Positions 6,350 through 46,443 of a stretch of 62,519 bases of DNA are shown piece after piece (position 1 is the first letter of the stretch; each line of letters begins with the position of its first letter). The DNA is from an uncultured delta proteobacterium. Its GTDB lineage: Bacteria > Desulfobacterota > Syntrophia > Syntrophales > UBA8958. The notes under the pieces were generated by a model. That model saw nothing but the letters and a program-made list of their open reading frames with translations, ran no database searches and was not told the origin of the DNA. Position numbers and translations under genes: made by a program. The stretch is taken from assembly GCA_903885795.1 (NCBI GenBank), contig CAISJV010000049.1:1-62519 (forward strand), written 5' to 3'.

Positions 6350-7525
6350 TTATACACAAAATCCCCCTGAATCCCTCTTTCTCAATGGGGAACGGGTCTG
6401 TTGCAATAGCGCCGCCCCTTGTTTTCTCTGCTTTAAGGTCATGACATTCCTTGCTAAATTGATGGCCCGCACCAGGTCGCCGCTTAGCATCCCGAATTCC
6501 TGGTTGCCCATCAGCAAGGCGGCGGCCGGCTTTTGCAAAGCCTCCTGAAACTGCCGGGCCAGGTCCCGGAAGGACAAAACAAGGGAGATCAGGCCCTCAT
6601 GCCTGCCGTCACTGTCCAGAATCCGCGCCGCCTCGGAGGCAATGAGCCGAAGAGTATCCCGGAGATATTGGAGACGGCCGAGATCAGCCGGCAAGTCTTC
6701 CGCAGTCGCCCCTTCCTGTCGTCTAAGTTCCTTTAATAACAAAGACATCTGCCTGTTGATCCCTCCCAGAACGAGGCCCATGAGGGTGACATCTTCGATT
6801 TCCCGGAAGGCGATGGCGATGTCCGGGTAGGCCGTCCCCTCCGGGCCAACGAGATTTTCCGCCGGGATTTCGCAATTTACCAGCCTGATGCCGCAATGGG
6901 GGGAGGGCTTGAAGTTGGCAAGTTTCATCGGCGCTGTCAGAGTGACGCCCGGTGTTTCCTTCGGAACGATTAAGGCGCTGAATTGTTTCTTTTCCCCCGC
7001 ACCCTCGGCCCCGGTGACGGCGAGAACAACATAGAGATCCACGAATGGACCATTGGTCAGATAGGCCTTTTCGCCGTTGACAACATAGACATCTCCCCGG
7101 CGCTCGGCCTTTGTTTTCAAATACTTGGGATGGGCGCCCACTTCAGGCTCGGAGATGGAAATGGAGGCCGTAATCCTTCCCTGGGCCAGGCCCGGAAGAT
7201 ACCGGGACCGTTGTCCTTCATTCCCCAGCCCGGCAAACACCAGCCGGGCCACGACATTATGGATCATCCAGGAAAGGCCGATCCCGAGACTGCCTCCCTC
7301 GGCAGCGATGGCCTCCGCGGCCAGGGTAATCGCCAGATAATTCATGCCCAACCCACCGTATTCCCGGGGAATGGCGATCCCCATCAGGCCCGCATCTCCC
7401 AGCTTCCGCCAAAGGGACATGGGGAATTCGTCATGATCGCCCTGAGCCACCCAGGGGGCGATCTCCTCACGGGCAAAACAGGACACTTTTTCTATGAATT
7501 CGGATCGATAATTATGGGATGTCAT
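6350..7525 (-). CDS. Acyl-CoA dehydrogenase-family flavoprotein with atypical C-terminus
   Basis: A 391-residue protein with clear acyl-CoA dehydrogenase N-terminal and middle domains: REYGGLGMNY, the FAD-contact block ITASISISEPEVGAHP, and NGEKAYLTNGPFVD. The C-terminal helical domain is unusual. I cannot find the usual IYEGT-type segment that carries the catalytic glutamate in many family members, so the reaction is uncertain. The last dozen or so residues are encoded by a dispersed palindromic repeat (6358-6393) that appears to have replaced the native end. The start at 7525 overlaps the MarR gene by 14 bases, pointing to translational coupling. An in-frame start at 7627 lies deep inside marR and is rejected. 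Confidence 0.75.
   Translation of the reverse strand: MTSHNYRSEFIEKVSCFAREEIAPWVAQGDHDEFPMSLWRKLGDAGLMGIAIPREYGGLGMNYLAITLAAEAIAAEGGSLGIGLSWMIHNVVARLVFAGLGNEGQRSRYLPGLAQGRITASISISEPEVGAHPKYLKTKAERRGDVYVVNGEKAYLTNGPFVDLYVVLAVTGAEGAGEKKQFSALIVPKETPGVTLTAPMKLANFKPSPHCGIRLVNCEIPAENLVGPEGTAYPDIAIAFREIEDVTLMGLVLGGINRQMSLLLKELRRQEGATAEDLPADLGRLQYLRDTLRLIASEAARILDSDGRHEGLISLVLSFRDLARQFQEALQKPAAALLMGNQEFGMLSGDLVRAINLARNVMTLKQRKQGAALLQQTRSPLRKRDSGGFCV
6358..6393. repeat. Dispersed palindromic repeat, family A, copy 1
   Basis: It begins AAAATCCCCCTGAATCCC and ends with a matching purine-rich arm. It resembles the copies at 11335-11371 and 11863-11912 and, more loosely, 13079-13100. This copy forms the 3' end of the acyl-CoA dehydrogenase reading frame. 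Confidence 0.6.
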
Positions 7526-7964
7526 TTTTGTTGCCGCCGTTTTTATTGAATTTTTCGAAAAATGATCTAAGGATGACTTTGAATATCTCCATCTCCTCCG
7601 GGGGAAAGCCGGTCTTGATTTCTTCATTAACTCTTTTGATGATCATCTTGGCCTTGTCCCCGGCGGCGATTCCTTCCGGAGTCACCTGAATGAGGAGGGA
7701 ACGCCGATCCGTCGGACTGGCCTGACGGACAACGAAGCCCGCCTTCTCCAGGCGGTCCACGAGGCCGGTGAGGGTTGAGTTATCCACCCCGATAAGCTGG
7801 CTCAGATCGGACATGGTTCGTCCGTTGCTCTGCTTGAGAAGGAAGAGGATGCTCGCCTGGACAAACGTCACCCCTACGTTCGCCGCCACCAGGGCATTGT
7901 TCAGGTATGTCCGCAACTTGTTCTGAGCGGTAAAGATGAGGAAGATAAGCCGGTCGTCTTGCAT
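7512..7964 (-). CDS. MarR-family transcriptional regulator
   Basis: A 150-residue winged-helix regulator. The wHTH is seen in SNGRTMSDLSQLIGVDNS, and the wing in VDRLEKAGFVVRQASPTDRRS with the DxRS signature typical of MarR proteins. These dimers usually repress a neighbouring operon until an aromatic or acyl ligand binds. The start at 7964 (ATG behind GGGGAG) is preferred to a TTG at 7994. The acyl-CoA dehydrogenase gene overlaps its 3' end and is probably in the regulon. Two direct copies of AACATTTGG at 7994-8002 and 8009-8017 lie in its promoter region and are candidate operator half-sites. Confidence 0.85.
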   Translation of the reverse strand: MQDDRLIFLIFTAQNKLRTYLNNALVAANVGVTFVQASILFLLKQSNGRTMSDLSQLIGVDNSTLTGLVDRLEKAGFVVRQASPTDRRSLLIQVTPEGIAAGDKAKMIIKRVNEEIKTGFPPEEMEIFKVILRSFFEKFNKNGGNKNDIP

Positions 7965-9183: not shown

Positions 9184-10263
9184 TCAAGTATTTGTTAAAT
9201 TAATGGCCTGGCGATAAGCAGCCATCAGGCTATTAATTTCCATTTTCGGAGAGGGCCAGGCGGCGGCGCGGTCCCGGCAGGTCCGGGCCAAGGCGGAACG
9301 AAGAGCGTCGTCGTCGATAAGGCGGATGGCTTTTGCGATGAAATCATCCATATTTTTAGGATCATAAAGGAGGCCGCAGGGTCGATCTCCAATATTTCCC
9401 TGGATTGGCCAGCGGTTTCCTTCAATATCTGCGGCCAAAAGCGGTTTTCCCGAGGCGATGGCCTCGATGAGGACATTGGAAAGGCCCTCGGAAAAAGAGG
9501 TATTCATAACAATATCGGCTGCTTGATAAGCCGACCGCATGGCCGGGGGAGAGATGGCGGGAAGCCAGCAGGCAAATGACCGTAGGCGCCGGATCTCCTC
9601 CTGGAACCTGGCGCTGTAATCCCGATCCAGGGCCGGTCCCGCAAAGATCGCCCGGGTCTGGGGGCGGCGCTCGTGGACTTTTTCGAGGGCAAGGAGCCCT
9701 TCCAGGTTGCCCTTGACCGGACGAATCCCGGCGGGGAGAAAGAAGAGAAAATCATTAGGCCCGGCTTGCCCCTCCTCCCGTAGGGCGCAGGTCTCATCCC
9801 CCAGCCAGAGAAATGACTTGGGTACATAGATGACCCGACGCTCTTCAGCGGGGAAAAGATCTTCCATAAGGTGGGCAAACGAGCGATTTTGAACCACTAT
9901 TACCGTCACACGGGCGCAGATTGCCTGCAAGGTCTCGAGCTTGCCCACGACCCGGAGATCCTGATTGAGATCCGTACCGGCGGGAGTCGCCACTACGGGG
10001 ATACCCTGAAGCTGCTCGGCCAGGGGTGGGGCCATCAGGAGCGCCCCGGACTGGAAAAGATGGTGCATATGAATGACGTCGGGGCGGAAACGGACGACGG
10101 CTTGCCCTATTTTAGACGGTTCCACGTCCCGCGTCGTCAGGACTTCTACCTGACAGCCTTCCCTGAGCAGACCCTGGCGCCAGCGTTCGGCGGTCATGGC
10201 ATTCCCCGTAATCGCGGGCAGGGCGGTGGGGGTCAAAATGAGAACGCGGAGTGGCGACATCAT
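9184..10263 (-). CDS. GT4-family glycosyltransferase
   Basis: A 359-residue GT-B fold glycosyltransferase of the group 1 (GT4) family. The N-terminal domain begins VLILTPTALPAITGNAM with a Gly-rich acceptor loop. The C-terminal domain has the donor-binding signature FSEGLSNVLIEAIASGKPLLA, the E-x7-E type motif of retaining enzymes. The start overlaps the stop of the upstream deacetylase gene by four bases (ATGA), so the two are translationally coupled. A deacetylase paired with a glycosyltransferase suggests stepwise modification of a glycolipid or polysaccharide. Substrates cannot be read from the sequence. Confidence 0.8.
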   Translation of the reverse strand: MMSPLRVLILTPTALPAITGNAMTAERWRQGLLREGCQVEVLTTRDVEPSKIGQAVVRFRPDVIHMHHLFQSGALLMAPPLAEQLQGIPVVATPAGTDLNQDLRVVGKLETLQAICARVTVIVVQNRSFAHLMEDLFPAEERRVIYVPKSFLWLGDETCALREEGQAGPNDFLFFLPAGIRPVKGNLEGLLALEKVHERRPQTRAIFAGPALDRDYSARFQEEIRRLRSFACWLPAISPPAMRSAYQAADIVMNTSFSEGLSNVLIEAIASGKPLLAADIEGNRWPIQGNIGDRPCGLLYDPKNMDDFIAKAIRLIDDDALRSALARTCRDRAAAWPSPKMEINSLMAAYRQAINLTNT

Positions 10264-11282
10264 AACTGAATCTCCGGAAAGGGTGTCAGGAAAGCACCTT
10301 TTTCTTTCAATACCTTAAGAAGTATTGGATCAAGGAGAACATCTAATTCCTCTTCCCGGTTCATGTTTGAAAAGGCGGAAAAAGGCCCCTGACCAGGTCC
10401 TGCGGGGGCCCGCCCCGGGTGCGCCATCAATTCCGTAAGCCCGTGCGGAAGTTTGGACAGCAGGTTTTCCAGAAAAGCCAATGAGAGTCTTCCTTTAGCA
10501 TATAGCCCCCGGAAATGGTCCGTCGTCCGAACGCCGGAGTCCTGCAGGAACGGCCGGGCTGCGGCCGCCAGACGGCTGAACATGGCTGCTTCCCGGCGGA
10601 GGACTACCATATAATTATAATTTGTTTCGCTACAGTCCGGCAAATGATCCGGCCACGAAGAATCACCAGAGATTAAAGCTGATGTATTTAAAAGCGTATC
10701 TTTATTAAAGCTTGGGGAGCCCGGGTTTTGGAAAGCACTCCTCTCATGAGCGCGGTGGGGGAATTCTTCCTCACCAAAAGCGGGAGGAACCAACACCGTC
10801 TCTTCCGGAATGCGGAGCCAGGCGATACCATGCCTTTGCGCCGCCCCGACCGCCGCTGCGATCACCGCCGGGAAGATATGGACATGCTGGTGTCCGTCCA
10901 GATGGCTGATCCTGATGGCTTTCGATTCCAAAAGCCCGATTTGGGCCTCGATTTCCCGGGCGACCTCCCGCTCCAATTCCTTATTCCCTTTTTGCATCAA
11001 CAGCTTATGTGCGGATGATTTTCCCAGGAAACAACCATGTTCGTCAGGGAGGACAGCAAGTCCTTTGCAGACAGGCTCTCCTTCCGAGAGATTCACATGG
11101 AGGCCCACCGAGACGCCCCGGTCCTGCCAGGCGGGCAGGCGGGCCAGGGCATCGTCGAAGGCAGGTCCGTTGACCAGGAGGCTGACGCTGGTCACGACGC
11201 CGGCGTCGACCGCCTCGGCAATCCCCTGATTGCGATAGGCATCAGCACCAAAATCATCTGCATTAACAATAAGTTGCCTCAT
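10260..11282 (-). CDS. YdjC/ChbG-family carbohydrate deacetylase
   Basis: A 340-residue protein of the YdjC-like family. It has the metal-binding NADDFG near residues 6-11 and DGHQHVH in the middle, both hallmarks of these metal-dependent de-N-acetylases. The family includes chitooligosaccharide deacetylase ChbG and the hopanoid-associated HpnK. The start is set at 11282, where MRQLIVNADDFG matches family N-termini. The frame is open to 11402, but that extension is encoded by a family A repeat (11335-11371) and is probably not translated. The gene is coupled to the downstream glycosyltransferase by an ATGA overlap. Confidence 0.78.
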   Translation of the reverse strand: MRQLIVNADDFGADAYRNQGIAEAVDAGVVTSVSLLVNGPAFDDALARLPAWQDRGVSVGLHVNLSEGEPVCKGLAVLPDEHGCFLGKSSAHKLLMQKGNKELEREVAREIEAQIGLLESKAIRISHLDGHQHVHIFPAVIAAAVGAAQRHGIAWLRIPEETVLVPPAFGEEEFPHRAHERSAFQNPGSPSFNKDTLLNTSALISGDSSWPDHLPDCSETNYNYMVVLRREAAMFSRLAAAARPFLQDSGVRTTDHFRGLYAKGRLSLAFLENLLSKLPHGLTELMAHPGRAPAGPGQGPFSAFSNMNREEELDVLLDPILLKVLKEKGAFLTPFPEIQL

Positions 11283-11334
11283 TTGAGAATCCACGTCAAA
11301 CAATCCGATTTTCTTCGTCGCCCCGCAAAATCTC

Positions 11335-11371
11335 CCTGTATCCCCCTTTTGAGAAAGGGGGAATGATTTCA
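11335..11371. repeat. Dispersed palindromic repeat, family A, copy 2
   Basis: It contains CCCCCTTTTGAGAAAGGGGG, a near-perfect hairpin flanked by AAAATC and GATTT ends. It sits between the methyltransferase stop (11390) and the deacetylase start (11282) and extends the deacetylase frame upstream without a stop. Confidence 0.65.
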
Positions 11372-11389
11372 TAGCCACATCATGCGGGT

Positions 11390-12190
11390 TCATTTTAACC
11401 AAGGACGGGCGACTCGGAGGAAGAGGTTCTGAAAGACATACCCTCCCTCTTCCTGATCTGCGAAATCCGCCATCTTCATCGCCCGGAGGGAAAGTAAATG
11501 TTCCATAAGCCCCTCTTGCCGGGACTCGTATTCATCGAAGGTAAACCAACGATTTGTTTCGTGAATAAGACGCACATCGGCAAAATGCCTGGCCAGTTCC
11601 TGCCTTAGCCGCACCGGATTGGCAAGGCTGATGGCCAGCAGCCAGAGCCTTCCCCGCACCGGGTTCAGATGGGCGGCGGCGCCGGCGATAATGGAGAGCA
11701 GGTGGTCCGTGCCGTCCCAGCCTCCATAGCGGGAACCGCAGGGCACGGGTCCCGGGGTTTGGGGAGGAGTGGCCACAATGACATCGAAGCGCTCTTCCTC
11801 CCGGACCGCCTCAAACCAGGAACCTTCCCGCAATTCGATACGGCTTTCCAGCCCATTTATATGAAAATCCCCCCTGCCTCCCTTTGTCAAAGGGGGGTTA
11901 AGGGGGATTTTCGTGCTTCGTTGTTCCCGCTTGCAAGCAGTGGTGTTAATCCGGGCATTCTCACGCGCCGCTGCCAGGGCTGACGGGTCCACATCCGTGG
12001 CAATAATCTGCCGAGCCCCGAGTTTTGCCGCCCCTATGGAGAGCAGGCCGGACCCGCAGCCGAGATCGAGAACCGACTCGCCGGCCTGAACATCGAGAAG
12101 CCTGGCCAACTCTATACTCGACGGCGGCGGCATGTGAACCGCCTGGGGAATCAACAGCTCTACCAAACCCGAGGGTAGCTGAATCAGCAT
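11390..12190 (-). CDS. Class I SAM-dependent methyltransferase (PrmA/HemK-like) with in-frame repeat insertion
   Basis: A 266-residue methyltransferase. The SAM-binding motif I is LDLGCGSG, followed by the acidic loop TDVDPSALAAARENARIN. The motif ATPPQTPG resembles the NPPY-type motif of HemK/PrmA enzymes that methylate side-chain nitrogens, so a protein or small-molecule N-methyltransferase is plausible. About 17 residues (near 93-109, reading KIPLNPPLTKGGRGDF) are encoded by a family A palindromic repeat inserted in frame between the SAM fold strands. The frame stays open, so the protein may tolerate the insertion as a surface loop. The acceptor is unknown. Confidence 0.72.
   Translation of the reverse strand: MLIQLPSGLVELLIPQAVHMPPPSSIELARLLDVQAGESVLDLGCGSGLLSIGAAKLGARQIIATDVDPSALAAARENARINTTACKREQRSTKIPLNPPLTKGGRGDFHINGLESRIELREGSWFEAVREEERFDVIVATPPQTPGPVPCGSRYGGWDGTDHLLSIIAGAAAHLNPVRGRLWLLAISLANPVRLRQELARHFADVRLIHETNRWFTFDEYESRQEGLMEHLLSLRAMKMADFADQEEGGYVFQNLFLRVARPWLK
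11863..11912. repeat. Dispersed palindromic repeat, family A, copy 3, in frame within a gene
   Basis: The outer arms GAAAATCCCCC (11863-11873) and GGGGGATTTTC (11902-11912) are perfectly complementary, and a CCCTTTGTCAAAGGGG core lies inside. The 50-base element sits inside the methyltransferase and translates without a stop. Confidence 0.85.
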
Positions 12191-46236: not shown

Positions 46237-46443
46237 TGGGTCATTCCGGCGAAAGCCGGTGTGACGGCTTGTGAGTCTTACATCAAATATCGACGTTCTC
46301 TCAAAAAATTAATTTCCTCCCTCCCCTTCAAGGGGATGGGTTTGCGGGGGGAATATGGGGACGCCTTATTTAATCCGTTAATTATTTACGGCGTCCCCAT
46401 ATTTTTGTCCAAAAGTCGTCATTCCCGCGGCGTCGGGAATCCT
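46237..46443. repeat. REP-like GTCATTCC hairpins, family D, two copies
   Basis: GTCATTCCGGC-GAAA-GCCGG at about 46238-46258 and GTCATTCCCGCGGCGTCGGG at about 46424-46440 bracket a spacer between convergent genes. They match the hairpin type at 37616-37640. The intervening sequence has GGGGACGCC and GGCGTCCCC (about 46358-46398) as a further inverted repeat. Confidence 0.55.

What the first reader, a model, noticed from the sequence alone, without database searches (positions are those of the whole stretch)
11863..11912. Palindromic repeat inserted in frame inside a methyltransferase
A perfect outer inverted repeat of 11 bases encloses a family A element within the coding sequence. It translates to a Pro/Lys/Gly-rich loop without a stop. 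Family A copies also form the end of the acyl-CoA dehydrogenase and extend the deacetylase frame. Protein-coding palindromic repeats are best known from Rickettsia.
Basis: partly seen in the sequence, partly recalled or inferred. Interest (0 to 1): 0.58.

Follow-up and report, generated by a model that had tools for sequence, protein, structure and literature searches.

The report
Mobile DNA hairpin inside a methyltransferase
A 90-letter piece of mobile DNA, apparently a stripped-down relative of jumping genes that use an RNA guide, has inserted into a methyltransferase gene without breaking its reading frame, and relatives of the same piece have lengthened or joined other proteins in sister species.

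Summary
The palindrome at 11863-11912 is real (fold z -5.5) and lies in frame in a methyltransferase gene. It is part of a 90-nt insertion (net 11856-11945) that five of five orthologues lack. The unit is a two-hairpin mobile element; a 22-base piece of its left end occurs in 52 of 155 genomes of the order, the reversed control in none. One intact IS110-family insertion sequence (G086) has matching ends, and IS110 gene fragments adjoin such ends in G085. Nine insertion loci have empty sister sites; six show AA at the junction, as expected of a two-base IS110 core. YT precedes AA in 62 of 92 left ends. I read it as an IS110-derived MITE. Only 1 of 7 pattern-recognised copies in this genome is in a gene. 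G008 has one in frame in its YdjC gene, and three species share one joining exosortase and EpsI-like genes. Insertion and in-frame reading are firm; the "family A" grouping and Rickettsia analogy hold only in part; trans-mobilisation and protein effects are inferred.

The parts
11390..12190 (-). Methyltransferase gene (266 aa, PrmA/MTS-like) carrying the insert
   Evidence: ORF; Pfam (PrmA 1.1e-17); five orthologues without insert
11856..11945 (-). Net insertion, 90 nt (30 codons); with the left AA the unit is 11856-11947
   Evidence: Alignment to G004, G007, G008, G009, G010; element ends
11946..11947 (-). Left AA of the proposed two-base core
   Evidence: Single AA at the junction in G004, G007 and G008; AA at 6 of 9 empty loci
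11856..11857 (-). Right AA of the proposed core (end of CATATAAA)
11924..11939 (-). Degenerate left-end hairpin 1 (family consensus GCCCG-nnn-CGGGC)
   Evidence: here GCTTGCAAGCGGGA, so the family stem is degenerate
11907..11924 (-). Conserved left-end linker ACAACGAAGCACGAAAAT, including the left subterminal inverted repeat
11863..11912 (.).
11326..11364 (.). Half-palindrome ('type B'), shares only the C-rich core; upstream of the YdjC domain, probably not translated
6358..6389 (.). Half-palindrome ('type B') encoding the last residues of ORF 6350-7627
10260..11402 (-). YdjC-like deacetylase ORF; its orthologue in sister genome G008 carries its own in-frame copy of the element

Best explanation
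The feature is a miniature, transposase-less derivative (MITE) of an IS110-family insertion sequence. It keeps only the parent's two ends: a left end with a small hairpin plus the linker ACAACGAAGSATGAAAAT, and a right end ATTTTCATATAAA. A C-rich palindrome stands in place of the transposase gene. An IS110-type transposase with its guide RNA, acting in trans, would move it, through a circle, into a site with a two-base AA core, preferentially after YT (YTAA), without other duplication. In the methyltransferase the net gain is 90 nt, a multiple of three, read in an open frame, so a 30-aa Pro/Lys/Gly-rich segment was added at a tolerated position. Shown here: the insertion, its ends, empty sites, ends shared with an IS110 element, the open frame. 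Inferred: mobilisation in trans, the circle, the guide RNA's role, that the lengthened protein is made and works.
For: Five of five orthologues (G004, G007, G008, G009, G010) lack this 90-nt segment. The whole ~90-nt unit recurs in sister genomes with unrelated flanks. Left-end signature in 52 of 155 genomes of the order, reversed-pattern control 0 of 155. G086 has a complete ~1.6-kb IS (CDS 419 aa; PF01548 5.7e-20 and PF02371 5.6e-16; NCBIfam NF033542 'IS110 family RNA-guided transposase' 234.9 bits, cut-off 140) bounded by matching ends (its left end reads AACTCTTATG where most copies read AACCCCCATG). In G085 four left-end contigs hold the transposase N-terminus and four right-end contigs its C-terminus; the left ends are identical from CTAAC inward, the right ends up to CATATAAA, and both differ outside. 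Five further left ends of this type in G124, three with transposase N-terminal matches (L155, L159, L194). Six of eight other IS110 loci examined, at about 41-45% identity, have the same left-end plan with other, complementary stems. Nine loci with empty sister sites, six with AA at the junction. YT before AA in 62 of 92 distinct left ends against 5.4% of NNAA in the same loci. Of 82 left-hairpin places in eight genomes, all read, 78 continue into the linker, a variant of it, or the IS right-end region. dN/dS of the methyltransferase, insert codons left out, is 0.08-0.31 in pairs with this genome and 0.08-0.42 in pairs among three orthologues.
Against: No IS110 with E<=1e-60 to the G086 transposase in the window's genus (0 of 8); the seven IS110-type genes found there show no convincing ends of this kind and are at best 22-24% identical, so a mobiliser is absent or missing from the drafts. 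The right-end string ATTTTCATATAAA (up to 1 mismatch) was not found in any of the eight other IS110 loci examined. Junctions: L069 shows CA, L073 GA, L070 AG in the one sister with both flanks; L097 differs by about 10 nt in length; single sisters at L063 and L078 lack AA. The left subterminal repeat lies about 30 nt from the end, not the 7 bp usual in IS1111 elements (PMC11187229, passages). No guide RNA was identified; Rfam gave none. This copy's own hairpin 1 is degenerate, so it may be immobile. The origin of the C-rich interior is unexplained.
Confidence: 0.82

Rival explanations
1. The unit (or its left hairpin) is an independent REP/MITE-like repeat of other origin, and IS110 elements merely use it as a landing site, as IS1111 does with QMITE2 in Coxiella.
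For: Such a case is published (PMC5896051, passages). IS110-family elements insert into specific targets such as REP elements (PMC11208160, passages). By the IS1111 rule (7 bp and 3 bp outside the subterminal repeats) the IS would start inside the unit.
Against: Four IS copies in G085 share an identical left hairpin while three solo copies read in that genome differ. At the methyltransferase and YdjC sites the whole unit, hairpin 1 included, is absent from relatives. Of 82 left-hairpin places only four do not continue into the element: two strands of one palindrome (L249/L257), one running into N (L303) and one probable chance match (L316). The stem differs in a complementary way between IS110 subgroups.
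Confidence: 0.1
2. REP/REPIN system moved by a Y1 (RAYT) transposase.
For: Two-hairpin form; YTAA-like left target; Y1 matches in 5 of 6 genomes searched; a unit lies near Y1 genes in G009 and G004.
Against: No Y1 match in the window's own genome. Eight of ten Y1 loci have no unit in the stretch held. The full ends are found on an IS110 element instead.
Confidence: 0.05
3. Rickettsia-palindromic-element-like selfish DNA specialised for life inside genes.
For: In-frame copies in three unrelated coding contexts across four genomes; several stop-free frames in the consensus.
Against: Only 1 of 7 pattern-recognised copies in this genome is inside a gene; six of nine insertions with empty sister sites are intergenic as I read the ORFs. 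No excess of open frames over base composition was shown.
Confidence: 0.03

Closest known systems
IS110 family (IS110/IS1111 groups) with bridge RNA / seekRNA
   Same: Transposase family on the parent element; insertion with a two-base core; subterminal inverted repeats; right noncoding end (226 nt) longer than left (123 nt) as in IS1111 (PMC11208160 passages)
   Different: The window unit has no transposase gene; left subterminal repeat is about 30 nt from the end; guide RNA not identified
Bacterial MITEs derived from IS elements (e.g. MITEPsy1, 100 nt)
   Same: Short, multicopy, no transposase, ends shared with an autonomous IS (PMC3189936 passages)
   Different: I met no IS110-derived MITE: the MITE review has 0 occurrences of IS110 and mentions IS1111 only as inserting into QMITE2 (passages); searches (15 of 29 listed; 20 of 35; 25 of 150; 11 of 11) show none by title or abstract start; one MITE table was seen only in part (PMC3852290)
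Rickettsia palindromic elements (RPE)
   Same: Palindromic, can be inserted in frame in protein genes
   Different: Shorter (90 against about 150 bp by the review), other taxon, mostly outside genes in what was examined, IS parent identified
QMITE2 of Coxiella burnetii
   Same: Small palindromic repeat associated with an IS110-family (IS1111) element (passages)
   Different: There the repeat is the target of the IS; here the repeat carries the IS ends
REP/REPIN with RAYT
   Same: Hairpin repeats spread over the genome
   Different: No Y1 match in this genome; two unlike hairpins

Membership tests
MITE | Short element without transposase gene, in several copies at unrelated sites | tested here: met
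   67-114 nt copies with unrelated flanks
MITE | Ends shared with an autonomous IS | tested here: met
   G086 complete IS; G085 left- and right-end contigs with transposase fragments
MITE | Terminal inverted repeats | tested here: inconclusive
   Inverted repeats ATGAAAAT/ATTTTCAT are subterminal, not terminal
MITE | Mobilised in trans | not testable with these tools
   Needs an experiment
IS110-family derived | Insertion at a short core without other duplication | tested here: met
   AA at the junction in 6 of 9 empty loci; exceptions L069 (CA), L073 (GA), L070 (AG in the sister with both flanks)
IS110-family derived | Subterminal inverted repeats 7-17 bp (IS1111 group) | tested here: met
   11 bp in G086, 9 bp in G085, 8 bp in G124 (its right end read from transposase-less copies), by eye
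IS110-family derived | Terminal extensions 7 bp left / 3 bp right of the repeats (IS1111 group) | tested here: not met
   About 30 nt on the left; 3 nt plus the core on the right. So I file it under the IS110 family, not the IS1111 group
IS110-family derived | Bridge/seek RNA with guides for target and ends | tested here: inconclusive
   Right noncoding end folds but no guides demonstrated; Rfam silent
Rickettsia palindromic element | Inserted in frame in ORFs in a large share of copies | tested here: not met
   1 of 7 pattern-recognised copies in this genome
REP/RAYT | Y1 transposase in the genome | tested here: not met
   PF01797: 0 matches in the window's genome

The most novel reading that the evidence does not exclude
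A lineage-wide family of passengers of RNA-guided IS110 recombinases exists: about 70-nt and about 90-nt units with ends only, and a 143-nt form that keeps the parent's right-end noncoding (putative guide-RNA) region but no transposase. Because the recombinase prefers YTAA, which contains the stop codon TAA, and the units have open frames, they act as natural protein remodelers: they add internal segments (methyltransferase, YdjC), alter C-termini, and can abolish a stop codon and join neighbouring genes, as with exosortase and EpsI in three species.
Probability: 0.4. Interest if true: 0.75.

Novelty: new variant of a known kind. Interest (0 to 1): 0.6.

Why it matters
IS110-family recombinases are RNA-guided and are being developed as genome tools. 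Natural minimal passengers would show which end sequences suffice for recombination in vivo, and the empty/filled pairs give a natural record of target choice. The unit also offers a second bacterial lineage, with a traceable IS parent, in which palindromic mobile DNA is read as protein, so that tolerance of such insertions and gene joining by insertion can be tested.

Tried and rejected
Ordinary conserved loop: rejected, five of five orthologues lack it. REP/RAYT origin: followed through Y1 searches and dropped when the full ends appeared on an IS110 element. Integron attC-like and IS200/IS605-like readings: considered by eye only and dropped. Known structured RNA: no Rfam match for the window or, apart from a tRNA in L151, for four loci. 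AlphaFold of the methyltransferase with three rows: mean pLDDT 36, uninformative. Guide-RNA loops sought by eye in the right noncoding end: an ATATAAA string shared with the right end, nothing convincing. Codon-position test of the exosortase-EpsI linker: differences 10, 8, 5 at positions 1-3 (G008-G007) against 31, 15, 74 in the exosortase part, so no sign of amino-acid constraint on the linker; its openness is weak evidence, helped only by a 6-nt indel that keeps frame. Spanning ORFs: of 48 distinct copies found by pattern in the held loci (ORFs of at least 90 aa reaching 30 codons before and 20 after), 7 are spanned; I accept 3 as real (methyltransferase, YdjC, exosortase-EpsI) and not L005, L014, L082, L150.

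The hairpin test was first based on 30 of 82 places; the other 52 were then read too (and loci already held). These two mends pull in opposite directions and I left the odds as they were.

Solved structure of the IS110 transposase: no match at E<=0.001. Literature search for the C-rich core string gave papers unrelated by title (15 of 33 listed). A search with Syntrophus and repeat terms listed nothing on this element (10 of 582 listed). The Rickettsia paper PMC186582 is not held, so statements about it rest on the review.

Full report
The observation. The window holds a palindrome at 11863-11912 with perfect 11-base outer arms, 23-nt arms overall and a fold far better than shuffles (z -5.5, 0 of 200). 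It lies within a minus-strand ORF of 266 aa, 11390-12190, with methyltransferase matches (PrmA 1.1e-17), and is read without a stop.

What is inserted. A search of the 11 genomes of the family, this one included, gave orthologues in G004, G007, G008, G009 and G010; the other five gave only weaker, partial matches. All five orthologues lack 90 nt (30 codons), so the insertion runs beyond the palindrome: net 11856-11945. In G008 the site reads ATC-AA-TGG; here it reads ATT-AA-[insert]-AA-TGG. Contig lengths suggest that G007 and G008 are the records JANXZC010000012.1 ('Syntrophus sp.') and JAPLJZ010000252.1 ('Deltaproteobacteria bacterium').

What the unit is. Copies from four genomes of the genus (G000, G004, G007, G008) share the plan: (Y)TAACACCCATGCCCG-nnn-CGGGCACAACGAAGCATGAAAAT, then a C-rich palindrome, then ATTTTCATATAAA, with unrelated flanks. 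A 22-base piece of the left end occurs (up to 3 mismatches) in 52 of 155 genomes of the order, and its reversed control in none. The interior varies: 71-74-nt versions with a short interior, C-rich versions, and versions in which the left end runs into a longer leader. Both the short and the C-rich kind occur in the window's genome.

The parent. In G086 that leader is followed by a 419-aa gene with both IS110-family domains that passes NCBI's 'IS110 family RNA-guided transposase' cut-off (234.9 against 140 bits). This IS is bounded by matching ends (left noncoding part 123 nt, right 226 nt, 11-bp subterminal repeats), though its left end reads AACTCTTATG. In G085 four contigs break inside a left end with the transposase N-terminus and four inside a right end with its C-terminus, as expected of a multicopy IS in a draft assembly. 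All four left ends are identical from CTAAC inward and different outside. G124 has five left ends, three with transposase N-terminal matches, and 143-nt elements that join the left hairpin to the right noncoding region with no transposase gene between. These lie at five places (C13, C16, C24, C31, C82; C16 and C82 share the left flank but not the right). Six of eight other IS110 loci examined (about 41-45% identity) carry the same left-end plan with different but complementary stems; the right-end string was not found in any of the eight. Transposases at E<=1e-60 are in 10 of 155 genomes, none in the window's genus. G008 does keep a left-end leader without a transposase behind it (L251).

How it inserts. 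I joined the flanks of 23 copies in a script and searched 12 of them. Seven gave sister sites matched across the junction; L084 is filled in two sisters; for L066 the sisters lack the element but also about 46 nt around the site; L077, L088 and L089 gave no match across the junction. With the methyltransferase and a copy in G008 (L063) this makes nine loci. In six (methyltransferase, L063, L064, L074, L078, L097) at least one sister has AA at the junction; L069 has CA, L073 GA, and L070 AG in the one sister with both flanks. L097 differs in length by about 10 nt, and single sisters at L063 and L078 lack AA. Among 92 distinct left ends 62 have YT before AA, against 5.4% of NNAA in the same sequences (the AA was part of the pattern that found them). 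L064 and L074 have sisters that already show TT or CT before AA, so YT looks like a property of the target. A short core is what is published for IS110 elements, and a 22-bp donor was recombined when the bridge RNA was given in trans (PMC11208160, passages). That makes a passenger with ends only plausible; it is inference here.

The main rival. In Coxiella, IS1111 lands in the MITE QMITE2 (PMC5896051, passages). Here I searched for the left hairpin alone in eight genomes: 82 places. I read all of them: 30, 40, 12 in loci already held. It continued into the linker, a variant of it, or the right noncoding region in 78. The four others are one place seen from both strands (L249/L257), where two left ends face each other, one that runs into N (L303) and one probable chance match (L316). 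The identical hairpins of the G085 IS copies and the two sites where relatives lack the whole unit also speak against the target reading.

Effects on proteins. In this genome 7 copies match the 22-base pattern, and only the window's copy is inside a gene as I read the ORFs; more degenerate copies (for example L002, L005, L014) are not among the 7. Of the nine insertions with empty sister sites, two are in frame inside genes (methyltransferase here; YdjC-like 319-aa ORF in G008), one is near the C-terminus of an ORF (L064) and six are intergenic, four of them about 8-33 nt after a stop. In G008, G007 and G004 a shared copy joins an exosortase domain (PF09721 2e-53) to an EpsI-like domain (DUF3485 3.7e-17; both scanned in G008 only) in one frame (531 aa in G008). 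The nearest relatives without it, G003 and G144, have two separate genes. On paper, by the AA rule, the site before insertion would have had the exosortase frame ending at a TAA and the EpsI frame starting at an overlapping ATG (my reading). Against over-reading this: exosortase families with a built-in C-terminal domain exist (the XrtW and XrtD profiles span both parts, below their cut-offs), and the linker shows no amino-acid constraint. In the methyltransferase, dN/dS outside the insert is low in pairs with and without this genome (0.08-0.31 and 0.08-0.42, four genomes), which does not tell how old the insertion is. The structure model failed. Alignment of the insert-free orthologue to solved methyltransferases puts the site after the stretch that follows 'DVDP', before the next conserved stretch.

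Verdict. A 90-nt IS110-family-derived MITE inserted in frame in a methyltransferase gene: insertion very well supported, IS110 origin well supported, mobilisation in trans and biological effect inferred. I met no description of IS110-derived MITEs in the held papers: the MITE review has no occurrence of IS110, and searches show none by title or abstract start in the rows listed (15 of 29, 20 of 35, 25 of 150, 11 of 11); most subscription papers are not held. Papers were seen as passages or listings only, none whole.

Noticed in passing
window 6358-6389 and about 11326-11364; also L007, L008, L009, L093, L095: A second repeat, half-palindromes AAAATCCCCCTGnATCCCCCTTTGTCAAAGGGGGA, shares the C-rich core with the element but not its left end; relation and origin unknown.
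   Followed up: partly
G124: L183, L185, L190, L191, L265: 143-nt elements with the IS110-type left hairpin and right noncoding region but no transposase, possibly mobile units carrying only a guide RNA.
   Followed up: partly
L249 around 1491-1525 (G124:C13:30809-30839): Two left ends joined head to head as a short palindrome without the rest of the element.
   Followed up: no
L084, L235, L236 (G008:C178, G007:C60, G004:C277): Shared insertion that joins exosortase and EpsI-like genes in one reading frame; separate genes in G003 and G144.
   Followed up: partly
L109 1079-1150 and L111 3259-3324: Copies of the element (degenerate in L111) lie about 0.4-1.5 kb from RAYT-like Y1 transposase matches in G009 and G004.
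   Followed up: partly
window 46352-46403: Another strong inverted repeat, 23-nt arms 87% complementary with 6 nt between (AATATGGGGACGCC...), unrelated to this element by eye.
   Followed up: no
L251 (G008:C24): IS110-type left-end leader without a transposase gene behind it, a trace of the parent IS in the window's genus.
   Followed up: partly
L284, L285, L288, L298 (G020): In G020 several left ends run into a shared CATTCCGGACCCGATCCGGAATC repeat instead of the usual interior.
   Followed up: no
L322 (G008:C100:2250-2700): At the L070 site G008 carries a different insert of about 70 nt with its own palindrome (CACCCCGGCGAAAGCCGGGGTG), so the site may attract more than one kind of repeat.
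   Followed up: no
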